A stretch of DNA of 53,298 nt, taken from positions 1-53,298 of the forward strand of contig JAFULG010000029.1 in NCBI GenBank assembly GCA_017473435.1, in the 5' to 3' direction. Under the pieces are notes generated by a model. It made no database searches. It saw only the letters and a program-made list of their open reading frames with translations, and had not been told where the DNA came from. Made by a program: the position numbers and the translations under genes. Positions 12,201 to 48,072 of the stretch are shown here, in pieces. This stretch comes from Clostridia bacterium (GTDB taxonomy: Bacteria; Bacillota; Clostridia; Oscillospirales; Acutalibacteraceae). Position 1 is the first letter of the stretch; each line of letters opens with the position of its first letter.

Positions 12201-15200
12201 CCTGTCTTTGTTTTTCTTCGGGTCACCCGCTTTAACCTGTGACTCTCCAAGTATTTCTTCACTTGGTCGCTGTTCTGTCTTCTGATCAGTCGCGACCTCG
12301 CTCTCATCAAGCATAGGAAATAAATTTTCTTTGACCGCTTCCTTCTTTTTCGTTTCAATCGGAACATGTCCTACAGGAACGAGCGCCTGCTGTTCGGCTA
12401 TAGGTGTGTTCTGCGTTGTACCGTCTGCACCCTTTACCCTGAAATCCTTACCCGTAATCTCGTGACGCATCGGTGCGACTATGTTGCCAGTGTTTTTACT
12501 TTTGGCAGAAAGAGAAAAGCTATCCGATGTATTGACATTTTCGGTGGAATCGGGTATACTATCACTAGGAGCAATACTTTCATAAGCTGGTGCGATTAGT
12601 GCATCACCTTCACTGAATGTATTGCTCTTATTATTTACTCTAATAAGATTTTTCTCTCTTATCTGTCGGTTTATATATTCTCTAAAATTGTCACGTCCGA
12701 AAACGGTGGCAATTTTATTTGTTTGAATAAAAACACGGTTGCATTGAGCAATTTCGTCAATGAAAACGGGCACATTTATAACATTTCCATTATCATCTTT
12801 AAACTCTGTTACCAGCAAAAAGTAATTTTCTCTCCTCGATGAATCACTCGAATTCTTCGTGCCTCGATATGCCTCTTTGACATTATCAAGGCTATCAATT
12901 ATCTTCAAAAAGTATTCTTCACCTATTCCGTGATAATGAGTGTGATTGTCTACTTTTAAGCCAAGTTTTTGTGCTTCAGCTTCCGTAAAAACATTTTCTC
13001 TTATATGAGAAGCATTCATTACCATTTTATGGTTTTTAACCCCTTTTTGAGAAAGCATTATTTCAGGAGTTTCATCACGCAACAGAACTTCGTTACGATA
13101 ATTCTTATCATAAAGTGCCTTGTGCAATTCACTTTCAGCATTAGCTGACAAACTATATTTAGCATTCACACCGCCCTCATCGGCGGTGCTTTTTTCTGCC
13201 ATAGCTTCCTTATATGCCTTCTCAAAGCTCCTCTTGACCTTTTCAAACTCCCTTGCTTCCTTACTTCCTGCGGAAGCGACCTTGCAAAGGTATTTGACTT
13301 CATCCCACAGTCTTTGAAAAACGTTCCTGTTTTCAACTGAAATCTGCTTGATGAAATCATAATCCGTTAAAAGGTAGTCACCCACAAGCTCGGAAACAAG
13401 CTCCGCCTCGGCCTTTGATGAATTTTCAACACCGTCGTAAAGTGCCTCTATCTCTGCAAGCTTGCCCTTGATATCAAGACCCTTACTTTCGGCGTATTTA
13501 AAAAGAGCTTCCTTAAGGTCAACGTAAGCACCCGTCTTTTCAAGACGGTGGGTTATCTCGTGACCCGTTGTCCTGTTAAGCAGCTTATCTGAATCGAGGT
13601 TGAGAACAACGCCCTCATCGGTTATCATACCGTTGATAACCGTTTCACCGCTTTTGACCTTTTCAAGGGCTGTCTTCATTGCAGCAAGGAGCTTTGTCTG
13701 TGCTTCGGTTCTTTCTACCTCGGGTATGCTTTCAAGCTCACTTATCCTTTTGCCCTGGCGCTCAATGAATTCCGCCTTAATCTGTTCACCGCTTCTGAAA
13801 TCAAAAACAGTGCCCGTATCACCGGCAATGGTCGCCTGAAGCTCAACAAGGTCACGCACACGGTTTGTGTTGTTGGCATTGGCTTTCACCGCATTTTCTA
13901 GTGTTTTCTTGGCGGCATCGCTGTGCTTTGAATTTTCAAACTTGCTTACATCCGCCTTGAAGCTTTCCTTGGCTCTGTCAAGCTCTCTGTATGTCTCCTC
14001 AAGCTTACTGCCTTCAACAAGCTTACGCACGTTCTCACCGAGCGTCGCCTTAAGTCCCTCGGCCGTTGTCTTGCCTTCCGCCTTCACATTTTCAAGCCCG
14101 TTCTTAAGGTTTTCAACATTCTTCTCCATAGCGGCAAGCTCATCCTTGATTGAAGCCTGACGGTCCTGCTGTTCACCTGTCATATCCCCACGCTTCATTT
14201 TGTTAAGAGTGTCATACTCCTGCTGAAGTGTGTTCATTTTGTTCTGTATTCCTTCAATCATATCGTTGAAGGTTTTCTCTTTGCCCTTGGTGTCATCGGT
14301 TGCCTTTTTATAGCTTTCATAATCCTTGCCACCGAGAACACTCTCAATGGTGTCTGTGCTGATATATCCCTTTTCAAGGGCAGTGTATACCTCGTCGCGG
14401 ATTTTCTTTTTTTCCTTGGAAGTGAGAGCTTCCCCCTCCGCTTCCTTTTCGGCAATAAGGTTTTCAATTTCCTTATCAACAACCTTCTGCTCATTGTTGG
14501 AAAGTCCCGTAACATAGTCCGTACCCTTAATTTTGTGTGCGGCAATATCCATACCTTCAAACAATCCGCCCGTAATCATACCGCCAAGGAAGGATTCCCA
14601 CGCATCCTGTGAGCTGAATATTTCATTAAATTCCTTCTCATTGAGATATGTAAGCTTTTTACCGATTGAGGATATAAGGTCGGAAACCACCTCCTCGGCA
14701 CCTTCACCCACGGTGTTGATACCCCACTTCGCAAGGGTCTGCAATGTCTTACCTGAAAGAGCCCTCGCAACACTCTGAACTGCATTCTCCGTGAGGGTCT
14801 GACCGCCGAGTTTTACACCATTGAACACCTGGTCGCCTGCCATTTCAGCAGCGGCGGTCATAATACCGCTGGCCATTGCTCCTTCAAAGCTTGCTCCTTC
14901 TCTGAGCGCTTCCTCAACCTCTCCGCCGCCTGCGGTAAAACCTGTCATCAGGTAGCCCATACCTCCACCGAAAATGGTACCCACAAGCTTTGTTGCCGCC
15001 GTGTTACCGATTGATTTTATAACACCGCCGAGCTTGTCTCCCATCACCGATGCAGCACCTGCATCAAGCCCTGTCATTTCCTTTACGGGCGCGCTGATGA
15101 GCTTCTTTGCAATGTCATCCTCGTTATAAAGATCCTTTTTTACAAACTCCGTAGTTCCCTTCGTGGCGGCCTTTTGCATCGAGTTGAAGCTTTTTGCAAT

Positions 15201-36727: not shown

Positions 36728-37855
36728 ATGTACAAAAAAAGAAGCGACGGAAGGTACCGTACCAAGGTCTACGATGCAGAAAAAGGCAAGTACAAGTATA
36801 TTTACGCCACAACGGTGCAGGAGCTCAAGAAAAAGGAAGCGGAGCTCAGGGCTCAGCTTGATAAAGGGATTGATGTTTCCTCTGCTGATGATACCTTCAC
36901 TCAATGGCTCACCCGCCTTAAAAAGGTTCGTGAAACCGAGCTTACCGAAAGTGAATACAGTACCTTCTGTTACCGTGCGGATTTCTTCGCCGGGCACGTG
37001 GGACACCTTCCCCTGAAGAGCATCAATCAGCAGCTCCTTCAACCTTTTGTCAATGAGCTGTGGAACGAAAACCCCGCAACAGGCAAACCCTCATCAAAAC
37101 GTACCCTGCAAAGATACATTGCATCCGCATCAGCCGTCTTTGAATACGCCATAGAAAACCGAGCAACCGAGTTTAATCCCTGCCAATACCTTAAGGTACC
37201 TAAACAGGCAGTTGTTGAAGAACGTCGGGCTCTCTCCCCTGCTGAACGTAAATGGGTAGAGGAAACACCGCACCGGGCACAACCTGCAGCAATGCTCATG
37301 ATGTACTCGGGTCTACGTCGCGGCGAAGCCACGGCTCTGCTCTGGTCTGACGTGGATTTTGAAAACCACACCATTACCGTCAACAAATCTTATGATTTTA
37401 AGAACAACTGTATCAAAAAGCCTAAAACAAAAGCAGGCACAAGAATTGTTTCCGTTCCCGCAAGGCTCATCGCATATCTTTCCTCACTTGATAAAAAGAG
37501 CTTATATGTTCTCACCACCGCCACGGGAAAGATGATGACGAACGATGCCTGGCACAGCTTGTGGAACAGTTACATTTGTGACCTTAATTTGAAATACGGT
37601 ACATCAATTGAAAAACGTAACAAATATGATCCCCGAGGCAACATGTTAACAATAGAACCCTTCACCCCGCACTGCTTACGTCACACTTTCTGCACAATAA
37701 TGTATGAAGCGGGAATAGATGTTCTAACGGCCAAGGAGCAGATGGGTCATAGTGATGTAAAAACTACTTTAGCAATTTATACTCACCTTGACGGTCAACA
37801 CAAAAAGAAGAATATATCCAAGCTTAATGAATATCTGCAGACAGGCACCGAGTAA
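36728..37855 (+). CDS. int: Tyrosine integrase
   Basis: A 375-aa recombinase. N-terminal arm-binding (AP2-like) and core-binding (SAM-like, about 55-150) domains precede the catalytic domain. Catalytic residues visible: R197 in MMYSGLRRGEA, K235 in PKTKAGTRI (probable), H315 and R318 in FTPHCLRHTFC, H341 in MGHSDVKTT and nucleophile Y351 in AIYTHLD. Ribosome site AAGGAG. The stop codon lies inside a terminator loop, about 145 bases before the right att repeat. It integrates into the 3' half of tRNA-Trp, as the repeats show. Confidence 0.95.
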   Translation: MYKKRSDGRYRTKVYDAEKGKYKYIYATTVQELKKKEAELRAQLDKGIDVSSADDTFTQWLTRLKKVRETELTESEYSTFCYRADFFAGHVGHLPLKSINQQLLQPFVNELWNENPATGKPSSKRTLQRYIASASAVFEYAIENRATEFNPCQYLKVPKQAVVEERRALSPAERKWVEETPHRAQPAAMLMMYSGLRRGEATALLWSDVDFENHTITVNKSYDFKNNCIKKPKTKAGTRIVSVPARLIAYLSSLDKKSLYVLTTATGKMMTNDAWHSLWNSYICDLNLKYGTSIEKRNKYDPRGNMLTIEPFTPHCLRHTFCTIMYEAGIDVLTAKEQMGHSDVKTTLAIYTHLDGQHKKKNISKLNEYLQTGTE

Positions 37856-38382: not shown

Positions 38383-38661
38383 ATGTCGAGTATTATAGAA
38401 GAATTTTATTACGGCAACATTGAACCGCAGGCACTTTCTACAGAACTCACATCTAAACTGAAAAAGAAGCTGAATGCTCTCGTTAAGAAAGAAGAAGAAT
38501 TGACGGCAATGCTACCTGAAAAGGAAAAGGAGCTGTTCACAAATTATGTGCTTACTTATAATGAGTTTTCAAGTATCAGCAATTCTGACAGCTTTATTTC
38601 CGGTTTTCGGCTCGGTGCAAGATTTACATATGATACTTTTATAACTAAAACGAAAGGATGA
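38383..38661 (+). CDS. DUF6809-like mobile-element protein
   Basis: A 92-aa helical protein: IIEEFYYGNIEPQALSTELT at the start and SFISGFRLGARFTYDTF near the end, the pattern of a small family common in Clostridial transposons (DUF6809). It lies between the 51-aa gene and tnpV, ribosome site AAGGAGTGA. Role unknown. Confidence 0.6.
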   Translation: MSSIIEEFYYGNIEPQALSTELTSKLKKKLNALVKKEEELTAMLPEKEKELFTNYVLTYNEFSSISNSDSFISGFRLGARFTYDTFITKTKG

Positions 38662-38666
38662 TTCTT

Positions 38667-39029
38667 ATGTCAAAGATTACATACCGTCAGGTTGGTGATT
38701 ATTTAATACCTAATCTCAAACTGCCACCCGAAGAGATAAAAGTTACTCTAGGTAAGTGGGGTATGCTTTACAAGGACTATCTTAACAAGAAAAAGAAAGT
38801 GGTATTTTCTACCCTCCTTGCGGAAGGCAAACTTTATCAACACTGTGCAGAAATAGAGAATCAGGCGAGGAATATGTTTGATACTCTTGTAGAGCAGATG
38901 AAAAAAGCCGAAGGCGTTACTGAAAAACTGAAAGAAGACAACCAACTTGAGTGGATACAGAGAATGGAAAACATTCAGCAACGGGCAAGTGAGATTGTTT
39001 GTAATGAACTGATATATAGTCAAAACTAA
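38667..39029 (+). CDS. tnpV: TnpV-family transposon protein
   Basis: A 120-aa protein from ATG 38667 (AAAGG nine bases upstream; an ATG at 38658 is too close). It has MSKITYRQVGDYLIPNLKLP, then RLGKWGMLY-like GKWGMLYKDYLNKKK and EGKLYQHCAEIENQAR, the signature of TnpV, an accessory protein first named on Tn4451-type mobilisable transposons. Its biochemical role is not well defined. Here no transposase, relaxase or recombinase accompanies it, so this is a remnant or one end of an element. Confidence 0.8.
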   Translation: MSKITYRQVGDYLIPNLKLPPEEIKVTLGKWGMLYKDYLNKKKKVVFSTLLAEGKLYQHCAEIENQARNMFDTLVEQMKKAEGVTEKLKEDNQLEWIQRMENIQQRASEIVCNELIYSQN

Positions 39030-39039
39030 TTAATCGAGA

Positions 39040-39075
39040 AAAGCACGACTTACAATAAAATGTAGGTCGTGCTTT
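39040..39075. terminator. Bidirectional terminator, tnpV and ECF operon
   Basis: AAAGCACGAC (39040-39049) pairs with GTCGTGCTTT (39066-39075) with extra inner pairs. It lies between convergent tnpV and the ECF fusion gene and has T-rich ends on both strands. Confidence 0.8.
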
Positions 39076-39094: not shown

Positions 39095-41737
39095 TCACTC
39101 CACCAGCCCATACTTAACCTTGATTCTGTCCATTTTCTCAAGCATAGGCTCTGCCGCAAGCATTATGAAAAGTGCTGTGCCGAAACCGTGAACTAAATCC
39201 ATCGGCAGACCGCTTATGTAATAAGCCATAAGCATTTTAAATGTAACGGTCTGAGATGATACCATAAATGCGGCGGCGGGGTTCATTATACCACCGTAAA
39301 TTATAACTGCCGTAAAGGCACCGAAAATTGCAAGTGAAAGTCTGCTTCTACGAAGCAATCCCTTTTTGAAAAGCACACCCGCAAGAAAACCTATTATTCC
39401 CATTGCAAACATCTGCCACGGTGTCCACGGTCCTTGTGAAAAGAGCATGTTTGACAGAAGCATTGTTACTGCGCCTACAAGAAAGCCTGCTTCACCACCA
39501 AAGGCAACACCTGCAATAATGGTTAATGCAAGAACCGGCTTGAACTGCGGAAGCATAAAGAAAAGACTTCTGCCTGCAATTCCTATTGCACAAAGAACTG
39601 CTATTGTTACAAGCTCTCTTGCTTTTGGCTTTCTGCCCTCAAAGATAAGCAGAAAAGGCAGCATACATTCAAGAAGCACAAGTAAAGCGACAATATTATA
39701 CTGACGGTCATCAAGGTAGAATATCCCTGAAAAAATTGTCAGAGGTATAAAAAGCAATATAGCAACAGAAGCAACAATTGTTCTTTTGCTCAGGTTTCGT
39801 TTTTCTTTCGGTGTCTGTATTGCTATGGGCGGTTCACTTCGTCTGCCTATGGCAAACAGAAAGCAAGACAAGGCAACGAATAATACACCATACAAGGATA
39901 ATTGCTGTTTACCCTCGACGCTGATTCCAGATGCATTTATAAGGGCGGATAAATCAGATATTCCTGTTGCATATAAGAATACACCGAGAGCAGTAAGCCC
40001 AGAAGCCGCTGCAAGTATCTTTCTCCATAATTTAAGAGGTTCAGGCTTGAAATTTGTGCTTCTTGCTGTCGGCTTCGGCAAGGGTGAAATTTCGTTTTCA
40101 TCTTCTGTTCTGCTGATTTCTCCGCCACAGGAAATAATAACGTCATTTACCGTAACAGCATCGGGAATAAGATGCCTTGCCATTCGGTTGGCAGAGGTCG
40201 TATAAAAGCTATTACCTGAAAAGAATTCACGTGGAGTACCTTCCGCTACAAGATTGCCGTCAAAAAACATACCGCATTTGTGAGCATATTCTGCACAGAA
40301 AGCCACATCATGGCTGACCATAAGTACCGTGACACCCTGTGAAGTCAGCTTGTTTATAATTCTTGCAAAGCTTACCTTGAATTCGGCATCAAGTCCCTTT
40401 GTCGGCTCGTCAAGAAGAAGTATATCAGGAGCAGTAAGCAACACCTTTGCAAGAGCAGTTCTTTGCTGTTCACCGCCTGATACATCATAAGGGTGACGGT
40501 CTAAAAGCTCCGTAAGCTCGCAAAGTGAAACCACCCGTGCAACCTGTTCTTCCTTTTCTTTTTTTGATATTTTAACTGTGCTTAAAGCTTCAAACAAATC
40601 CTCTCTGACGGTCTTTTTCACGAAAAGAGCCTGAGGATTCTGCGGAAGAAACGCAACCTTACCGCCAAGGGTAACACTACCTCTGTAAGCCTTACGAAGT
40701 CCCGATATTACCTTGAGCGTAGTTGTTTTACCTGCACCGTTGCCGCCGAGAATAGCATAAAATTCTCCCTTATGTAAAGTAAGTGAAAAGCCCTTCACTA
40801 CATCAGGTAGGTCTTTTTCATATCTGAACCATAGTTCGTCACAATGTAAAGTGATTTCATCACTGCATGTGTGCTGTGCCTGTTCTTCGAGTGGTAAAAG
40901 CTTCTTTTGCTTGTTGAATTCCGACAGAAAATCGCTGCCCTCACGGACTGTCAGCGGACAAGGTAAATCTGTTTTTGTTCCTGCCCACACTCTCATAGCA
41001 GTAGGCATTGCAAGAAACATACCGCTGTCTCTGTCACGCAGATGAAGTCCGACCCTTTGAGGTGCATCATCACAGATGATTTTGCCCTTTTCCATTACAA
41101 TCGCCCTTGTAGCAAAGGGAAAAGCTTCTTCAAGTCGGTGTTCGGTGAGAATGACAGTTATGCCGAGTTCACGGTTAATCTTACCCAAAAGAGCAAGGAA
41201 GTCCGATGCTGCAATAGGGTCAAGCTGTGCCGTCGGCTCGTCGAGAATAAGCACTTCGGGATTCATACACATAACAGATGCAAGACTTAAAAGCTGCTTC
41301 TGACCGCCCGAAAGCTCTGTTACATTTTTATAAAACCAGTTTTCTATACCGAAAAAAGCGGCAACCTCTGCAACTCTTCGGCGGATTGTCGGAGTATCAA
41401 GACCAAGGCTTTCAAGACCGAAGGCAAGCTCATGCCATACCTTGTCTGTTACAACCTGATTGTCGGGTGACTGCTGAACAAAGCCTATTTCCTGCGACTG
41501 AATACGTTCATCATTATCTGAAAGAAGCTTGTCATTATAACAGATTTCTCCTGTTCTTCTTCCGTGAGGAGTAAGGCAGGTTTTGAGATGTCTCAGCAGT
41601 GTTGATTTACCGCAACCCGAAGGACCGCAGAGAACAAGAAATTCACCCTGCGAAATATCGAAGGAGATATTAGAAAGGGCATTGTTTTCTATTTCCGGAT
41701 AAGCAAAGCTTAAATTTCTGAAACTAAAGCTTCCCAT
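39095..41737 (-). CDS. ECF transporter fusion: two ATPases plus predicted S-component
   Basis: An 880-aa polypeptide joining parts normally encoded by three genes. ATPase 1: Walker A CGPSGCGKST (about 37-46), signature ELSGGQKQLL (141-150), Walker B VLILDEPT (162-169). ATPase 2: Walker A GGNGAGKTTT (331-340), signature VSGGEQQR (419-426), Walker B ILLLDEPTKG. After a polar linker (about 510-565), residues 570-875 carry eight or so hydrophobic helices, including LVTIAVLCAIGIAGRSLFFM and a GGEAGFLVGAVTMLLSNMLF stretch, like the substrate-binding S-component of cobalamin-type ECF importers. ATP hydrolysis would drive uptake together with EcfT encoded just upstream. The whole operon lies behind a cobalamin riboswitch, so a corrinoid substrate is the best inference. 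Start ATG has AAGGAGG and overlaps ecfT by 28 bases. Confidence 0.82.
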   Translation of the reverse strand: MGSFSFRNLSFAYPEIENNALSNISFDISQGEFLVLCGPSGCGKSTLLRHLKTCLTPHGRRTGEICYNDKLLSDNDERIQSQEIGFVQQSPDNQVVTDKVWHELAFGLESLGLDTPTIRRRVAEVAAFFGIENWFYKNVTELSGGQKQLLSLASVMCMNPEVLILDEPTAQLDPIAASDFLALLGKINRELGITVILTEHRLEEAFPFATRAIVMEKGKIICDDAPQRVGLHLRDRDSGMFLAMPTAMRVWAGTKTDLPCPLTVREGSDFLSEFNKQKKLLPLEEQAQHTCSDEITLHCDELWFRYEKDLPDVVKGFSLTLHKGEFYAILGGNGAGKTTTLKVISGLRKAYRGSVTLGGKVAFLPQNPQALFVKKTVREDLFEALSTVKISKKEKEEQVARVVSLCELTELLDRHPYDVSGGEQQRTALAKVLLTAPDILLLDEPTKGLDAEFKVSFARIINKLTSQGVTVLMVSHDVAFCAEYAHKCGMFFDGNLVAEGTPREFFSGNSFYTTSANRMARHLIPDAVTVNDVIISCGGEISRTEDENEISPLPKPTARSTNFKPEPLKLWRKILAAASGLTALGVFLYATGISDLSALINASGISVEGKQQLSLYGVLFVALSCFLFAIGRRSEPPIAIQTPKEKRNLSKRTIVASVAILLFIPLTIFSGIFYLDDRQYNIVALLVLLECMLPFLLIFEGRKPKARELVTIAVLCAIGIAGRSLFFMLPQFKPVLALTIIAGVAFGGEAGFLVGAVTMLLSNMLFSQGPWTPWQMFAMGIIGFLAGVLFKKGLLRRSRLSLAIFGAFTAVIIYGGIMNPAAAFMVSSQTVTFKMLMAYYISGLPMDLVHGFGTALFIMLAAEPMLEKMDRIKVKYGLVE

Positions 41738-42600
41738 TTTTTCTCCTCCTTATAATTTAAAATAACGGGTGTTATTGAGAGTGCAGTAAACACACAGTAA
41801 AAGGGTATTGTTGTCATATCAAAGGCTGCATATCGTATATCGGGAAAATATCTGAAGCCGAAAGAGTCAAGCATTGTTCCCGCTACGAGAAATAAGTCGC
41901 AAAACGAAAACCATATAAGAGCATATTTATCTCTTTTCTGAAAGTTGTAAATAGAAAAAGCAGTTCTTCCTTTTAATCCGTAGCCACGGCTTTTCATACT
42001 GTCAGCAGTTTCAATGGCATTTTCAAGTGACCAGGTTATCATAATAGAAAAAATATGTATTGCAGTTTTAGTTCTCTCAAAAATACTGCCGTTTGAAACA
42101 TCTCTTCCGATACTTCTCTGTGCATCGGCAACAGTCATCATCTGCGACTTGAATTTTGGCACAAAACGAAGTGACATACTTAAAACAAGAGATAATGCAG
42201 GTATAATCTTGCCGAAAAGATAAATGAATTTATCGGTAGTCATAACACGGCTGAAGGATGAAAACCACATAATCAGTGTAATTATCATTGCTCCTGCCGA
42301 TAAACCATAAAGAATGCTTTCAAGGGTAAGAGGATTGCCGTTTGAAAAATAAAGCAGAATTGTTTTGCCTTCGTGGTTAAAGGCAGGATTTACAAAGGCT
42401 GTAATAATCACCATCGGCAGACAATATTTCAGAAGAAATAAAACACTCTTTTTTCCGTTGATGCTTACCGCATAGATAATCGCACAGCAAAGGGAAATCA
42501 CCTGTGCCAAAGGATGAGTCAGCACAAGCGAAAAGCCTATTACCAATGAAAAATAAAGTAAATTTATAAAAGGATGATAATCCGAAAAGCTATCACGCAT
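41710..42600 (-). CDS. ecfT: ECF transporter transmembrane subunit EcfT
   Basis: A 296-aa membrane protein; I choose ATG 42600 over a TTG 15 bases upstream because GGACGGA fits it better. Several hydrophobic helices are followed by the two coupling-helix motifs of EcfT: ADAQRSIG and ADSMKSRGYG (A-x-x-x-R-S/G type), which dock on the ATPases. It links the S-component to the fused ATPases of the next gene. It starts about 20 bases after the DUF4430 lipoprotein gene, in the same operon. Confidence 0.88.
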   Translation of the reverse strand: MRDSFSDYHPFINLLYFSLVIGFSLVLTHPLAQVISLCCAIIYAVSINGKKSVLFLLKYCLPMVIITAFVNPAFNHEGKTILLYFSNGNPLTLESILYGLSAGAMIITLIMWFSSFSRVMTTDKFIYLFGKIIPALSLVLSMSLRFVPKFKSQMMTVADAQRSIGRDVSNGSIFERTKTAIHIFSIMITWSLENAIETADSMKSRGYGLKGRTAFSIYNFQKRDKYALIWFSFCDLFLVAGTMLDSFGFRYFPDIRYAAFDMTTIPFYCVFTALSITPVILNYKEEKKWEALVSEI

Positions 42601-42621
42601 AATAATTCCGTCCAAATATCA

Positions 42622-43758
42622 TTATTGAGCACCCGCTAACCAATCACAGCCTACATCTCTGCCAAGGTCACAGGTATATCTCCATTCAACCTTTTCGCCA
42701 TCCTTAAGCTGATAACGTGAGCAGCCGTAATTAGGATACCAACCGTCAACGGCATACATCCATCCTGAAAGAGCACCGCAATCGAATTCATAAAGATTAT
42801 GAATACCCTCAACATAAGCACTGTTATAAACAGGTGTCCATGATGCCTCCATATGAATACCTTTTTCCCTGCACACTCGCTGAAGTACATCATAAACAGA
42901 TTCACCCTCATAGAAGGTAACAGTTGTCGGTGCAAGAATCACACCGTCTGAAGGAACAAGCTCACGCTTATCCGGGTCTAAATCGGGAAGATTATTGAGA
43001 ATTGTTGAGCATTCAATAGAGAAAGTGCAGGTGTATGCTTTTTTAGTATTAACTTCTTGATTTTCAGGCTCAACAGGCATAGGCTTACCCTCGGGAACAG
43101 GGTCAGTATCGTATTTATCCTTCATTGTGCTTTTGCCGTCAGAATAAACACGGTTATCTTCCTCCTTTGTTCCGGAAAGGTAATCGTCGCCCTGTACGGG
43201 AGATGAATTGTTCTGTGTGGTACTGTTTGTTTCCTGCTGTGTTGTTGTAGCAGATTCTGTAATCTCTGCATCATCAGGAAGAATAAAAAAATCAGGCACT
43301 ATTTTATTTACAGAAATATTCAGTATGCTTGTTTTGCTTCCTGTTAAAGAAACCGAATAAACTGCCAAGCCGTCTTTATATGCAGTTGCACCCTGCGAAC
43401 TCCATTTCTCGTTTAAATGAATTGATAAAAGCACAGGGAATCCGAAACCTTCTTTTTCGGTTAATTTCACATTCAGACCGTCGGCTGTTTTGCTTAAAGC
43501 TACAGCTAAATTTATATCCTTGGCTTCTGTTATATCACTGCCGAAAACAGTCCATTCATATTTTATTCCGTCAGAATTACCCTCAAAAACAGCGATCGCA
43601 TTTTCATTTTTTATCTTTTCAATCACAGCTTTTTCAATAACACCGTTTTCAGGTATTGCTATCGGCTCATTAAGATTCACCTGCGAAAAATTACCGCTAC
43701 AGCCGCAAAGGCATATAATCATTATAAAAACAAGACTTAAGCTTATTATTCTTTTCAT
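42622..43758 (-). CDS. DUF4430 (transcobalamin C-terminal-like) lipoprotein
   Basis: A 378-aa protein from ATG 43758 (AGGTG upstream); a GTG three codons earlier overlaps the upstream gene's stop. Residues 1-20 are a lipoprotein signal (MKRIISLSLVFIMIICLCGC) with the lipobox cysteine at about position 20, so it is anchored on the outer face of the membrane. A first beta-rich domain is followed by a Thr/Gln/Pro-rich linker (about 165-240). The C-terminal DUF4430 domain (about 270-365) shows TFYEGESVYDVLQRVCREKG, then SGWMYAVDGWYPNYGCSRYQ and KDGEKVEWRYT. DUF4430 is related to the C-terminal beta domain of transcobalamin and intrinsic factor that caps cobalamin. Direct cobalamin binding is inferred. 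It lies between the cohesin gene and ecfT. Confidence 0.82.
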   Translation of the reverse strand: MKRIISLSLVFIMIICLCGCSGNFSQVNLNEPIAIPENGVIEKAVIEKIKNENAIAVFEGNSDGIKYEWTVFGSDITEAKDINLAVALSKTADGLNVKLTEKEGFGFPVLLSIHLNEKWSSQGATAYKDGLAVYSVSLTGSKTSILNISVNKIVPDFFILPDDAEITESATTTQQETNSTTQNNSSPVQGDDYLSGTKEEDNRVYSDGKSTMKDKYDTDPVPEGKPMPVEPENQEVNTKKAYTCTFSIECSTILNNLPDLDPDKRELVPSDGVILAPTTVTFYEGESVYDVLQRVCREKGIHMEASWTPVYNSAYVEGIHNLYEFDCGALSGWMYAVDGWYPNYGCSRYQLKDGEKVEWRYTCDLGRDVGCDWLAGAQ

Positions 43759-43759
43759 T

Positions 43760-44386
43760 TTATTCACCTGCCACTATTTTTCCGTTTTTAACCTTTAATG
43801 TACCTGTTGTCATAGCAAGACTTTGTGTTTCATCAGAAGAAGCAAAAACAGCATCTTCAAAAATCAGGTCACAGACATCACCGCTTCTCATACTTCCTCT
43901 CAGGCGGAATTTAAGTCGGAGAACCACATTATCATCTTCAGCGAGAAGCTCCTTGCTGAAAGCATTTTTACCACCCGTTGTATCAAGGTACATAATGTTG
44001 ATTTTACCTGTTTTATTACATTGGTCGGGATTTACACTCCATTCGGGAAGAGTCTGCTGAACTTCATTTTCATCACTGCGGATAAACACATTTCCCTCTT
44101 CCACACCGAGAAATTCGAGTCTTGATGAGTCGAAGGAAATACTCATGCTTGCCGCAGGATAAATCACTTCACCGAGTGAAGAAATCGTTACATCAAGAGT
44201 GAATTCATCCGTTTCGGACACGCTTATTTTCTGCGGTGTTTCAATAGTCAGAACAGGTGTTCCCATTAACTTGTCTTTGCCGACTAAAAGAAAAACAGTT
44301 ATCAGCAAAGCAATAACCAAAACACCTATACCTGTTCCGATGATAATTTTCTTTTTGTTTTCAGGACTTATTATTACTTTGCTCAT
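43760..44386 (-). CDS. Membrane-anchored cohesin-domain protein
   Basis: A 208-aa protein. An N-terminal transmembrane helix (about 13-35, IIIGTGIGVLVIALLITVFL) leaves the rest outside. Residues 45-200 form a cohesin-like beta sandwich: LTIETPQKISVSETDEFTLD, then SISFDSSRLEFLGVEEGN and a long KFRLRGSMRSGDVCDLIFED end. Cohesins bind dockerins. The next upstream gene encodes a secreted protein with a C-terminal dockerin, so this protein may hold it at the cell surface. Stop and next start are one base apart, showing coupling to the DUF4430 lipoprotein. Confidence 0.72.
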   Translation of the reverse strand: MSKVIISPENKKKIIIGTGIGVLVIALLITVFLLVGKDKLMGTPVLTIETPQKISVSETDEFTLDVTISSLGEVIYPAASMSISFDSSRLEFLGVEEGNVFIRSDENEVQQTLPEWSVNPDQCNKTGKINIMYLDTTGGKNAFSKELLAEDDNVVLRLKFRLRGSMRSGDVCDLIFEDAVFASSDETQSLAMTTGTLKVKNGKIVAGE

Positions 44387-44404
44387 AATTGTTCTCCTTG
44401 TTTA

Positions 44405-44440
44405 AATCATGGGGATGAGAATGTTCCCACCCCCATGATT
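44405..44440 (-). other. Intercistronic hairpin between dockerin and cohesin genes
   Basis: AATCATGGGG (44405-44414) pairs with CCCCATGATT (44431-44440). No T-run follows on the minus strand, so it is probably an mRNA stability or partial-termination element that sets the ratio of the large secreted protein to the membrane components. Confidence 0.55.
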
Positions 44441-44447
44441 GAATTGT

Positions 44448-47297
44448 TTATTTGCTTGTGTTAAGGGTTGCCGCCTTTGTAACAACAATATATTCACTGC
44501 CGTCAACAAACTTTTCAACAATACCCAAAGCATCAAATGTATTGATTCTGCTGTCACCGTTTACGTTAAGAGAAAGTATCTCATCATCCTCAGGTGCATC
44601 GGTTTTGCGAAGCCATGTATCAACTGCTGAAAGTGCATCCTGAGCGTTGATTACACCGTCACCGTTTGTGTCACCGAAGGTGATTTCAGCAGCTTTTTCC
44701 TGTGTGAATGTAAAGTTCTTTTTATCCACAAACTTTGTCATATCAATAGAAGAATTGACCAAGGCAACATAGGTAGAAACACCTGTTTTGGCAGAGATTT
44801 CCTTGCTGTATCTGAACTCATATGTAAATGCTCCGTCTGAATATGTAAGCTTGTTCACATTATCAACACCTGCAACAGCCACTGCAACAGCCTTTTTCTC
44901 TGAAGGAATAAGATCAACGCCATCACCTGTATAAAGGCATACTGCACTGTAGGAGATTCCCTTGACTACATTTACTGTACCACCGGCCTTTGAGGTATCA
45001 ACAACAATCATTGAGTTATCATCAGAAGAGTCAGATGTAAGCTTGATTGACATGCCGCCGATATTTACTGAAAGTCTGTCATTTTCTTTCGCGCTGTCAG
45101 CCTTTAAGGTAATTGTGAAAAGTTCGGCAGGGAAGGAATTTCCGCTGACAGTTATATTGTTATGATTATTTGCATCGAAATAAACGATACGAAGCTTTCC
45201 TGTTTCTGCTTCAAGGTTATAGCTTACAGAGCCGCTCTTAAGTCTGTCTGATGCTGTAACCGATGCTACACTTAAACCGTCAGGAATATTAACAATAAGG
45301 TCAATAAGCTTATAGCCTGCCGCATTATCCCACTGGTCAATGCTTACAGTAGCATTAAAGGTCGCACCGCTATCATCTGTAATTTCAGAGGGCATACCAA
45401 GGCTTGCCTTGGGTTTACCGATAACAATCTCTTCCTTTTCACCGAAGGATACATCACTGTAATCAAAGAGTGCTGTTTTACCGTTCACAAAACGGTTGTA
45501 TGATACAAGAGCGTAACAAGCCTGGTCTGTTGCCATAGCATTTGATTCTGTGCCCTGATGAGCAAACATTCTGTCTTTTTCAACATAGTATGTAAGAAGA
45601 TTATCTACAGCAGATTTGCCGTTTTTGATAAATCTTGCATCTGTATCGGGATTGATTCCCCATGTGGTAAGAGCAACAATAGCCCACGCACAGCTTTCTG
45701 ATGTTTCTCCGCTTCCGTAAGGGAAGCCGCCTGTTGCAAGCTGTGAATCGGAGAGCCATTCTATTGCTTCTGCACAAGCAGCAGCAACCTCAGGCTGATT
45801 GCGATAAGGATAAAGAGCTGTAAGTGTCATACAGGTAATATCAACATTAGAGGGCTGAGTCTTTGAAGTTACCAAAGACCAACCGCCGTCATCATGTCTT
45901 GCATCAAGAATTGAATCTACACACTGCTGACGGATTGTGGAATCAGAGGTAGAATAATTGTTTGAATCAAGGGCAATAAGAGTCCATATTGTACCGTTAA
46001 GACCCTGCTTTTTAATCCAATTTATGCCGTTTTTACTGTAAGCATCAACAAGGTTCCAATTGCCTACGCTTGTTGCATCCTTGCCGATAGCAGAAAGAGC
46101 AACAATCAGACGAGAGTTTTCTGTAGATTTGTTTTTATCAAGAGCACCGTTCAGATTGATGCTTGATGCGGTAGTATTCACAGTTTCAACAATGCGGTTA
46201 TAGTAATCGGTAAAATATGCATTACTCTTATCGAAATATTCACCACGTGCAAGGGAGAATACTGTCCATTCACCTGCATTTGTACCGAAAGCGGGAGCCT
46301 TTACAGTATTTGCAAGTTGTGCCATAGTAGCGTTGAGCACGGCACTTACATCCTGAGGCTGACGTGAAGAGGAAGGCTCATCTTCACCGCCCACTGTAAT
46401 TTTTGCATAAGCGGGAGCTGATACAATACAGGGTGCTCCGGTTTCAAGGAGATAGTCACAGGAAGAATGCGTGCCGTCATCAGAGCCGTTTGCACCGTAG
46501 CACCAAAGATAATATGTGCCGGGCTTACTGATAGTAATATCAACATTACCGTCACCATCAGTAGTTAGAGTACCCTCTGCTTTTCCGTAGGTTTTGCCGT
46601 AATATACTTCATAATCTGCGGCACCGTAGATATAAGCTTCACCAAACATCAGGTCACAGAATGAGTGCATAAGCTTAACAGATTTTGTTTTACCTGCCTG
46701 TACTTCAAAATCATGCACCAGATTGCCCTTTTCATCTGCGAAGAAATGGAAGCCACCAAGAGAATCCCAAAGGAAGCTGAAGCACTCAAAGCTTGCAACA
46801 TCAAGGAAATCTCCTGCTTCAAGCACGATTCTGTCAGATGTTGCACCGACTGTCATATAATCGCTTGACTGTGACTCGTCAACAGGAAAATCACCGTTGT
46901 GGAAATACATAAGATTTTCTGTAAAGCCGAAGATACCACCCTTGAAATATGAAGAACCGGGAAGTGCATCGAAATTAACGTCACCCCAATCACCGCCGTA
47001 AAGCTCTTCGTGAGCGTAAATAAGAAGCTGTAAGGCTGTTGTTTCATATTCACCGTCACCGTCGGCATCATACAGCATATTATCAAGACCGTATTCTGTC
47101 AGGTCAACTTTTTCTATCTTGTCAAGCTCTATGGGAAGATAAACTATAGGATTATTGTTTTTGTCATTGATATATCTTCCGTCAAAGCTGATAGAAAGAT
47201 ATACGTATTCTTTTTCCACTGCAATTGATGTTAACGGTATAGCACTGATTATCATCACAATTGCAAGAAACAGGCTTAATACTTTCTTTTTCATCAT
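44448..47297 (-). CDS. Secreted toroid protein with DUF4430-like, cohesin-like and dockerin parts
   Basis: A 949-aa exported protein. Signal peptide 1-26 (MMKKKVLSLFLAIVMIISAI). Residues about 30-200 resemble a DUF4430/beta-grasp segment (TALQLLIYAHEELYGGDWGD, FKGGIFGFTENLMYFHNG). A further beta domain follows to 300. Residues about 315-610 are an alpha/alpha toroid of the prenyltransferase/squalene-cyclase type, with repeats such as DARHDDGGWSL (466-475), QLATGGFPYGSGETSESCAW and TDQACYALVSYNR. Residues about 630-780 look cohesin-like (ASLGMPSEITDDSGATFNAT). The C-terminus is a type I dockerin with two calcium-loop motifs, GDTNGDGVINAQDALSAVD and VNGDSRINTFDALG (872-935). The toroid is the fold of the N-terminal domain of intrinsic factor and transcobalamin. 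Corrinoid binding is inferred from fold plus riboswitch. Confidence 0.75.
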   Translation of the reverse strand: MMKKKVLSLFLAIVMIISAIPLTSIAVEKEYVYLSISFDGRYINDKNNNPIVYLPIELDKIEKVDLTEYGLDNMLYDADGDGEYETTALQLLIYAHEELYGGDWGDVNFDALPGSSYFKGGIFGFTENLMYFHNGDFPVDESQSSDYMTVGATSDRIVLEAGDFLDVASFECFSFLWDSLGGFHFFADEKGNLVHDFEVQAGKTKSVKLMHSFCDLMFGEAYIYGAADYEVYYGKTYGKAEGTLTTDGDGNVDITISKPGTYYLWCYGANGSDDGTHSSCDYLLETGAPCIVSAPAYAKITVGGEDEPSSSRQPQDVSAVLNATMAQLANTVKAPAFGTNAGEWTVFSLARGEYFDKSNAYFTDYYNRIVETVNTTASSINLNGALDKNKSTENSRLIVALSAIGKDATSVGNWNLVDAYSKNGINWIKKQGLNGTIWTLIALDSNNYSTSDSTIRQQCVDSILDARHDDGGWSLVTSKTQPSNVDITCMTLTALYPYRNQPEVAAACAEAIEWLSDSQLATGGFPYGSGETSESCAWAIVALTTWGINPDTDARFIKNGKSAVDNLLTYYVEKDRMFAHQGTESNAMATDQACYALVSYNRFVNGKTALFDYSDVSFGEKEEIVIGKPKASLGMPSEITDDSGATFNATVSIDQWDNAAGYKLIDLIVNIPDGLSVASVTASDRLKSGSVSYNLEAETGKLRIVYFDANNHNNITVSGNSFPAELFTITLKADSAKENDRLSVNIGGMSIKLTSDSSDDNSMIVVDTSKAGGTVNVVKGISYSAVCLYTGDGVDLIPSEKKAVAVAVAGVDNVNKLTYSDGAFTYEFRYSKEISAKTGVSTYVALVNSSIDMTKFVDKKNFTFTQEKAAEITFGDTNGDGVINAQDALSAVDTWLRKTDAPEDDEILSLNVNGDSRINTFDALGIVEKFVDGSEYIVVTKAATLNTSK

Positions 47298-47309
47298 GTA
47301 AACACTCCT

Positions 47310-47624
47310 TTATTCGTTTTTGTTTTCATTGGAAGCTTTCTGCTTGTTGGCGTTTTCTCTGCGTCTTTCTAATTTCTGACGTGCTGAAATAGTCTGATTT
47401 TTAGATTTGCATGCTGCCCGTTTTTTCTTTTTGGATTTTTCAGGAACGGACTTTGCTTCCTTTAACCCTGCAGATTCCAACGCCCTTGGCCAAGGACCGA
47501 GGAAGGCTTTGATTCGTGACCTTGTCGGTTCATCAAAATCATCCTTTTTCGGAAGCCTTCCGAGTTCTTCGGCCTTTTGTCTTAAAAGTTCTTCCGCCCA
47601 GGACTTTTTATCATCTGATGTCAC
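47310..47624 (-). CDS. Small basic protein with HNH-associated-repeat-like motif
   Basis: A 104-aa protein from a GTG at 47624, seven bases after AAAGGAGGG. The core (RQKAEELGRLPKKDDFDEPT, then RIKAFLGPWPRALESAGL) matches the short repeat associated with homing endonucleases and various DNA-binding proteins. The C-terminal 40 residues are almost all Lys/Arg/Asn. It is the first gene behind the cobalamin riboswitch terminator, an odd place for such a protein. It may be a regulator or a chance insertion. No catalytic HNH residues are present. Confidence 0.55.
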   Translation of the reverse strand: MTSDDKKSWAEELLRQKAEELGRLPKKDDFDEPTRSRIKAFLGPWPRALESAGLKEAKSVPEKSKKKKRAACKSKNQTISARQKLERRRENANKQKASNENKNE

Positions 47625-47730
47625 TTATCAACCCTCCTTTACATAACGATAAAAAAATACTCTTTCAACCAAACAGGTCAAAAGAGTACAACAGATTCAA
47701 AGCACGGTTAAACAGACTCTGAGTTTAAAC

Positions 47731-47790
47731 AAAACAAAAAAGAATGCAAACCCAAAGCCGCAATACGGCGATAAATCGGTTGCACTCTTC
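47731..47790 (-). terminator. Expression-platform terminator of the cobalamin riboswitch
   Basis: On the minus strand GTGCAACC pairs with GGGTTTGCAT (one bulge), with a short inner CGCC/GGCG-type stem, followed by a T-rich tract (47728-47741). It lies about 80 bases after the aptamer core and about 110 before the first gene. Ligand binding would favour termination. Confidence 0.75.
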
Positions 47791-47814
47791 TCACCAAAGT
47801 TGTGTTGAACCTAA

Positions 47815-48005
47815 AAAGACACGGCAGGTATCCTGACTTATGATGCAGCAGATAAAACTGCTTATGAGAGCACTCCTTCTCAGAAAAAATCCAATGGTTA
47901 TAATGCTCTCTCTTGTCAAATACAGTAATGGCGGTTGTTCAGGATTCGAACCTGATTCCCTATTTACATCTACTCAGCTTACAACTTTTCAAAACCGTAT
48001 CTTCT
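47815..48005 (-). promoter_or_regulatory. Cobalamin riboswitch
   Basis: On the minus strand the conserved elements appear in order: a GGGAATCAGGTTCGAATCC segment, GAACAACCGCCATTACTGTA, and then the hallmark AGTCAGGATACCTGCC (about 47823-47838) closing the aptamer. This is the order and approximate size of an adenosylcobalamin-type riboswitch. It controls the leftward operon 47624-39095, turning it off when corrinoid is plentiful. The TTCGAATCC in the middle resembles a tRNA T-arm but belongs to the aptamer. Confidence 0.85.
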
Positions 48006-48072
48006 TATATCAGTATTTAATTTTGTTTATTATAGCATTTGTTATTTAATTTTTCAATAGATTGCAAAGAAT

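What the first reader, a model, noticed from the sequence alone, without database searches (positions are those of the whole stretch)
39095..48005. Riboswitch-controlled split transcobalamin-like capture system with cohesin-dockerin tethering and a fused ECF importer
Seen: cobalamin riboswitch, then a secreted protein with an intrinsic-factor-type alpha/alpha toroid plus dockerin, a membrane cohesin, a DUF4430 (transcobalamin C-domain-like) lipoprotein, EcfT, and an ATPase-ATPase-S fusion. Known: in animals the toroid and DUF4430-like domain are one chain that sandwiches cobalamin; dockerins bind cohesins; riboswitches of this class respond to cobalamin. Inference: the binder's two halves are separate and assembled on the surface to hand corrinoid to the ECF importer. 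I do not know of this full combination being described.
Basis: partly seen in the sequence, partly recalled or inferred. Interest (0 to 1): 0.88.

Follow-up and report, generated by a model that had tools for sequence, protein, structure and literature searches.

The report
Tethered transcobalamin-like vitamin B12 importer
A bacterium appears to catch vitamin B12 outside the cell with relatives of our own B12-carrier proteins, clip the catcher to its membrane with the fastener known from cellulose-degrading complexes, and pass the vitamin to a dedicated importer; the core was predicted in 2007, but the clip and the importer pairing look new.

Summary
In detail: one minus-strand unit carries a cobalamin riboswitch (75.9 bits), a small HNH-repeat gene, a secreted toroid-dockerin protein, a membrane cohesin, a DUF4430 lipoprotein, EcfT and an EcfA-EcfA-S fusion. 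Support for corrinoid uptake: the S-domain profile's best solved match is a chain of ECF-CbrT, the B12 importer (E 2.1e-18; riboflavin RibU 2.4e-4); the DUF4430-family profile's five best solved matches are all transcobalamin-2 (best E 0.0025); 40 of 59 sampled toroid loci have a same-strand cobalamin riboswitch upstream; both cobalamin riboswitches of this genome precede DUF4430 genes. The genome's only dockerin and both its cohesin domains lie in this operon. Over 85 loci, dockerin toroid and membrane cohesin occur together in 5 and neither in 80; other toroids end in SLH, membrane or sortase-like tails, so the dockerin looks like one of several exchangeable surface anchors. Corrections: the toroid protein also holds an internal cohesin and a probable degenerate DUF4430-like N-terminal domain, so it is not simply half a binder, and bacterial toroid/DUF4430/CbiO/CbiQ operons were predicted to scavenge B12 in 2007. 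Ligand binding, hand-over and cohesin-dockerin contact were not tested.

The parts
48029..48057 (-). promoter-like site TTGAAA-17-TATAAT with TG before the second hexamer
   Evidence: 11 of 12 consensus positions (27 such sites found in the scanned region, 19.8 expected by shuffling, so position is the main argument)
47806..48014 (-). cobalamin riboswitch aptamer RF00174
   Evidence: 75.9 bits, E 5.3e-17, full length 1-189
47657..47689 (-). terminator-like hairpin followed by a T-run, between aptamer and first gene; candidate expression platform
   Evidence: 13 such sites found, 6.9 expected; fold of 47850-47610 z -3.71
47310..47624 (-). small HNH_repeat protein, 104 aa, function unknown
   Evidence: PF18780 46.1 bits, cut-off 26
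44448..47297 (-). secreted toroid-cohesin-dockerin protein, 949 aa
46374..47222 (-). N-terminal domain, aa 26-308, probably a degenerate DUF4430-like (SLBB) domain
   Evidence: hhalign P 5e-4, probability 32%; 0 of 200 column shuffles reach the score; no Pfam DUF4430 match
45435..46358 (-). alpha/alpha toroid, aa 314-621
45009..45377 (-). cohesin-like domain inside the toroid protein
   Evidence: PF00963 24.9 bits, cut-off 24.1
44526..44675 (-). type I dockerin
   Evidence: PF00404 30.8 bits on the genome, 24.5 bits on the protein; calcium-loop pattern in alignment
43760..44386 (-). membrane protein with one N-terminal hydrophobic helix and an outside cohesin domain (43799-44212)
   Evidence: PF00963 35.4 bits, 35.7 bits; helix read from sequence
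42622..43767 (-). lipoprotein with C-terminal DUF4430/SLBB domain (42673-42906)
   Evidence: PF14478 60.7 bits; family profile matches transcobalamin-2; lipobox read from sequence
41710..42615 (-). EcfT transmembrane protein
   Evidence: PF02361 31.8 bits
39095..41737 (-). EcfA-EcfA-S fusion; S domain about 39104-39661
   Evidence: two ABC_tran stretches, PF12822 and PF07155; TIGR04520 330 bits; S profile best solved match 6fnp_A
39040..39075 (.). hairpin just after the operon, possible terminator
   Evidence: 15 pairs (reported there for the + strand; near-palindromic)

Best explanation
A cobalamin-controlled corrinoid scavenging operon. When corrinoid is short the riboswitch lets transcription pass the terminator-like hairpin. 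The toroid protein is secreted and held at the outer face of the membrane because its dockerin binds the cohesin of the single-helix membrane protein. The toroid, with an SLBB domain (its own N-terminal one and/or that of the lipoprotein), captures a corrinoid in the manner of intrinsic factor and transcobalamin; the DUF4430 lipoprotein shares in capture or hand-over; the CbrT-like S domain with EcfT and the two ATPase domains imports it. Shown here: gene set, riboswitch, fold and homology of the parts, genome exclusivity and co-occurrence of dockerin and cohesin, closeness of the S domain to ECF-CbrT. Inferred: corrinoid as ligand of the outside proteins, dockerin-cohesin contact, attenuation, direction and order of hand-over.
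Confidence: 0.75

Rival explanations
1. Same corrinoid system, but the dockerin mainly binds the cohesin domain inside another (or the same) toroid protein, giving chains or closure, with the membrane cohesin as root or with another partner.
For: The toroid protein has its own cohesin domain over the Pfam cut-off, found in 8 of the 9 loci with a membrane cohesin.
Against: L064 keeps dockerin and membrane cohesin at 35% cohesin identity without the internal cohesin. The internal domain is only just over the cut-off and scores weakly against the membrane cohesin.
Confidence: 0.15
2. The toroid is an enzyme (terpene cyclase or a sugar-acting toroid enzyme) that releases or modifies something at the surface, and the importer works alone.
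Against: Cyclase DXDD motif not intact: D-x-D-I-T in the family; secreted; linked to cobalamin riboswitches and DUF4430; fused to DUF4430 in L041, L046, L048.
Confidence: 0.05
3. The importer carries another substrate such as riboflavin or a metal ion, and the riboswitch is a coincidence or a cross-regulation.
For: PF07155 (riboflavin-type S) matches 25 of 25 S domains; CbiQ is named for cobalt.
Against: CbrT entry 2.1e-18 against RibU 2.4e-4; riboswitch linkage over the class. A corrinoid precursor such as cobinamide stays possible, since CbrT binds it too (passage).
Confidence: 0.05

Closest known systems
Bacterial transcobalamin-like SLBB/toroid operons with CbiO and CbiQ (Burroughs et al. 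2007, PMC1796856)
   Same: SLBB (DUF4430) domains, alpha/alpha toroid, CbiO/CbiQ-type importer, two extracellular SLBB proteins, predicted B12 scavenging by bacteria lacking B12 synthesis
   Different: The words cohesin, dockerin, ECF and riboswitch do not occur in the held text (counts 0); no CbrT-type S domain named there; here a dockerin-cohesin tether and A-A-S fusion
ECF-CbrT of Lactobacillus delbrueckii (Santos et al. 2018, PMC5997447, PDB 6FNP)
   Same: CbrT-like S domain, two ECF ATPases, EcfT; cobalamin and cobinamide import shown there
   Different: There the S-component is encoded as nrdJ-cbrS-cbrT-pduO and the energising module is shared by several S-components; here one dedicated A-A-S fusion with toroid and DUF4430 proteins in the operon
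Animal transcobalamin / intrinsic factor
   Different: One soluble chain in animals; here several tethered proteins, sequence kinship of the toroid to them not shown
Non-cellulosomal cohesin-dockerin modules
   Same: Cohesin and dockerin outside a cellulosome
   Different: Those in papers seen (listing; adhesion in ANME partners, passages) concern adhesion or degradation; none seen tethers a vitamin binder
BtuG surface B12 binder of Bacteroides (passage of PMC6977713)
   Same: Surface protein that captures B12 ahead of import
   Different: Beta-propeller working with BtuB in the outer membrane; other fold and transporter

Membership tests
Cobalamin riboswitch RF00174 | Score over Rfam gathering threshold, full length | tested here: met
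   75.9 bits, positions 1-189
Cobalamin riboswitch RF00174 | Ligand-dependent control of expression | not testable with these tools
   layout fits attenuation
ECF transporter | Two ECF ATPase domains, EcfT and an S domain | tested here: met
CbrT-type (B12) S-component | Sequence closest to CbrT among solved S-components | tested here: met
   6fnp_A 2.1e-18, next 2.4e-4; chain A taken as CbrT from its length of 182 residues (inference)
CbrT-type (B12) S-component | Binds and imports cobalamin | not testable with these tools
   none
Transcobalamin / intrinsic factor type binder | SLBB C-terminal domain | tested here: met
   PF14478 60.7 bits; profile matches transcobalamin-2 first, best E only 0.0025
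Transcobalamin / intrinsic factor type binder | Toroid specifically akin to the animal one | tested here: inconclusive
Transcobalamin / intrinsic factor type binder | Sandwiches cobalamin between toroid and SLBB | not testable with these tools
   fused toroid-DUF4430 chains exist in L041, L046, L048
Class II terpene cyclase | Intact DXDD motif | tested here: not met
   family reads D-x-D-I-T where the cyclase has DVDDT; D486 and T488 in 32 of 32
Type I dockerin | Pfam score over cut-off and two calcium-loop repeats | tested here: met
   24.5 bits, cut-off 22.9; alignment of six
Type I dockerin | Calcium-dependent binding to a cohesin | not testable with these tools
   only partners in the genome are in the operon
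Cellulosome | Scaffoldin with several cohesins and several dockerin proteins | tested here: not met
   one dockerin and two cohesin domains in the held genome, 96.9% complete

The most novel reading that the evidence does not exclude
The toroid proteins link head to tail, dockerin of one to internal cohesin of the next, into a chain rooted on the membrane cohesin: a vitamin-catching analogue of a cellulosome that presents many transcobalamin-like sites and relays corrinoid through DUF4430 lipoproteins to an ECF importer that, unlike those characterised, depends on outside binding proteins.
Probability: 0.12. Interest if true: 0.85.

Novelty: new variant of a known kind. Interest (0 to 1): 0.62.

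Why it matters
Many Gram-positive gut bacteria need corrinoids they do not make, and how they catch them outside the membrane is little known. Bacterial relatives of our B12 carriers beside a CbrT-type importer and cobalamin riboswitches give a testable answer, and would make an ECF importer served by outside binders, against the usual picture. A cohesin-dockerin clip used as an exchangeable surface anchor widens what that clip is for. Burroughs et al. 2007 proposed that animals took transcobalamin-like proteins from such bacteria; these operons are a place to test a shared binding mode.

Tried and rejected
Rejected: cellulosome membership; chance co-location of riboswitch and operon; terpene cyclase (motif not intact), although cyclases are the best fold match; the idea that separating toroid and DUF4430 is special to this locus.

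Led nowhere: a home-made B12-box regular expression missed riboswitches that Rfam had found (L036, L038, L045, L064) and was dropped. The toroid profile against solved sequences did not list transcobalamin (no exclusion). The narrow DUF4430 profile A4 gave no meaningful solved match; the broader A7 did. The membrane cohesin found no solved sequence at E up to 1. The AlphaFold2 model rests on 5 sequences, mean pLDDT 45.9; only the toroid is usable, so N-terminal domain, cohesins and dockerin were not tested by fold. The N-terminal domain gave no DUF4430 match in Pfam and only probability 5.7% against A4, against 25-32% with A7.

Rows left out or weak: of 22 matching genomes, G026 (signal peptide only) and G034 (dockerin only) are not toroids, leaving 20 of 59, own included; of 6 genomes with cohesin hits only own and G428 are of this kind; G277 is a 1707-aa protein with several cohesins and G272 a 460-aa protein without the other genes; G254 and G136 were not examined. 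G778 was not examined. G1057 has none of the other genes nearby. L003, L007 and L008 have no scored toroid and are not among the 85 loci. 77 of 85 tails were long enough to scan. The riboswitch count uses 59 of the 60 fetched class loci, G428:C56 left out. L064 and L136-L138 were found by searching with the cohesin, so their co-occurrence is partly by selection, and the Fisher value takes no account of kinship.
Full report
What is there. On the minus strand, from 48057 to about 39040, lies one compact unit. A promoter-like site (48057-48029) precedes a full-length cobalamin riboswitch (48014-47806, 75.9 bits). After 116 bases comes a terminator-like hairpin with a T-run (47689-47657), then an AAAGGAGGG sequence and the first gene. 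The stretch 47850-47610, which holds the 3' end of the aptamer and the hairpin, folds better than 200 of 200 shuffles (z -3.71). This fits transcription attenuation (inference). The genes follow closely or overlap: HNH-repeat protein, toroid-dockerin protein, membrane cohesin, DUF4430 lipoprotein, EcfT, EcfA-EcfA-S fusion, then a 15-pair hairpin at 39075-39040.

Domains. The 949-aa protein has a signal peptide (read from sequence), an N-terminal domain (26-308), a toroid (314-621), a cohesin-like domain, a further conserved stretch and a type I dockerin. The N-terminal domain is probably a degenerate DUF4430 (SLBB) domain: hhalign against 39 SLBB domains gives P 5e-4 and probability 32%, 0 of 200 column shuffles reach the score, and in L005 and L138 the family profile matches this region (46 and 38 bits). 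Against it, Pfam shows no DUF4430 there and the narrower profile A4 gives 5.7%. It is suggestive, not proven. The cohesin protein has one N-terminal hydrophobic helix and the DUF4430 protein a lipobox (read from sequence), so both should sit on the outer face of the membrane.

Importer and DUF4430. A profile of 25 S domains finds among 177,635 solved sequences first a 182-residue chain of 6FNP (2.1e-18), then riboflavin RibU (2.4e-4). 6FNP is the ECF-CbrT entry (passages of PMC5997447); that chain A is CbrT I infer from its length. A profile of 39 SLBB domains finds five transcobalamin-2 sequences as its first five matches (best 0.0025, others 0.08-0.11; aligned to the C-terminal domain).

Relatives. 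The toroid occurs in 20 of 59 genomes of the near set, own included (without G026 and G034), and a toroid match at E 0.001 or better in 115 of 391 genomes of the class. I read 85 loci with a toroid: DUF4430, EcfT and EcfA lie on the same strand in 62, and in 58 of these in the order toroid, EcfT, EcfA; 23 lack one or more of these, some of them cut by contig ends. Toroid and a C-terminal DUF4430 lie in one chain in L041, L046 and L048, and many loci have further SLBB domains on larger proteins.

Riboswitch linkage. Whole-genome searches of 59 class genomes and the own genome show a same-strand RF00174 within 13 kb upstream in 40 of 59 toroid loci (one, in G147, under the cut-off at 29.8 bits); 3 more have it on the opposite strand ahead of a neighbouring SLBB gene, 1 has it downstream, 15 have none, of which 8 have under 5 kb of contig upstream. 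L046 has the AdoCbl-II class. Of the nine dockerin loci, six have the riboswitch (window, L005, L030, L064, L136, L138); in L003, L004 and L137 the contig starts inside the toroid gene. The own genome has two cobalamin riboswitches: this one, and C23:4162-4394, just ahead of a DUF4430 lipoprotein and a small membrane protein. That DUF4430 is marginal (24.6 bits; 23.5 against a cut-off of 23.8).

Cohesin-dockerin. The genome, 96.9% complete, shows one dockerin and two cohesin domains, all in this operon. Among the 85 loci, dockerin toroid and membrane cohesin occur together in 5 and neither in 80 (Fisher 3e-8, not corrected for kinship). Three loci found later with the cohesin profile agree (L136-L138), as does L003, whose toroid is cut off. 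These nine loci (eight genomes; L003 and L004 are two contigs of one) come from at least four families. They keep the order dockerin protein, cohesin, DUF4430, EcfT, except that L030 ends inside its DUF4430 gene. L064, of another family, keeps the pair at 35% cohesin identity without the internal cohesin. The first dockerin loop reads NAQDAL in 6 of 6 aligned. The cohesin is rare: besides own, 1 operon-type hit in 391 class genomes, 3 in 394 order genomes, none in 398 phylum genomes. Other toroid tails carry SLH (41 of 77), DUF4430 (4), LPXTG (2), with dockerin in 5; 18 loci have a C-terminal hydrophobic segment, several after a sortase-like motif (my count). The dockerin thus stands where other relatives have an anchor, the strongest argument for its role.

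Need for corrinoid. CbiD was not found in the genome nor in any of the 20 toroid genomes, against 4 of 38 others (small numbers, and none of the genus has it). The genome has two B12-binding domains over the cut-off; one lies in a 794-aa protein (L065) that I read as methionine synthase (recalled).

Mechanism. Best reading: riboswitch-relieved expression, dockerin-cohesin tethering of the toroid, corrinoid capture between toroid and SLBB, hand-over to the CbrT-like S domain, ATP-driven import. Regulation and tether rest on comparative evidence, binding on homology, hand-over on inference. Main rival: the dockerin binds the internal cohesin and makes chains.

Prior art. Burroughs et al. 2007 (PMC1796856: abstract, passages, part 1 of 2 of section 7, and section 10) described bacterial SLBB-toroid proteins in operons with CbiO and CbiQ, predicted B12 scavenging and surface complexes, and noted that such bacteria usually lack key B12 synthesis enzymes. 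Searches for DUF4430 with cobalamin (2 papers), DUF4430 (6), intrinsic factor/riboswitch/ECF (16), CbrT or transcobalamin (1,407, 25 listed), transcobalamin-like phrases (7), dockerin with cobalamin (14), ECF and CbrT terms (18), non-cellulosomal cohesin or dockerin (18, 12 listed) and riboswitch/ECF/cobamide terms (2) showed no account of the dockerin variant or of outside binders for a CbrT-type importer. Most of these were seen as listings; passages were read in PMC4350170, PMC5997447, PMC7299338, PMC10553843 and PMC6977713. Subscription papers are mostly not held. Hence a new variant of a known, so far predicted, kind.

Noticed in passing
L129 (own genome, C23):4162-5425: Second cobalamin riboswitch ahead of a 149-aa DUF4430 lipoprotein and a 172-aa membrane protein that may be a lone S-component (no Pfam family): possibly a second corrinoid importer using a shared ECF module.
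   Followed up: partly
47310-47624: HNH_repeat protein between riboswitch and toroid; related small genes lie near the toroid in other loci (HNH profile hits in L030, L043, L044, L046, L072, L082, L089; L136, L138). Role unknown.
   Followed up: partly
L136:13028-13175 and 13610-13738: Two cobalamin riboswitches on one strand, one before the HNH-repeat gene and one between it and the toroid gene.
   Followed up: no
L064:11061-19901: Locus with two extra SLBB proteins, one with a toroid too; their C-terminal repeats look like cell-wall-binding CWB2 repeats (recalled, not scanned) beside the dockerin toroid.
   Followed up: no
2571-37855: Prophage-like region next to the operon: phage-type domains in two very large proteins and a tail-fibre match (PF18857, PF18819, PF03906) and an integrase-like ORF at 36728-37855 (read from sequence).
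   Followed up: no
38658-39029 and L129:7237-7656: Similar short ORFs, resembling transposon-borne TnpV (recalled), lie beside both riboswitch-DUF4430 loci of this genome.
   Followed up: no
44448-47297 (toroid): NCBIfam SCO2321_fam membrane protein matches 31 of 32 toroids far under its cut-off for the window member (36 against 300 bits), hinting at actinobacterial relatives.
   Followed up: no
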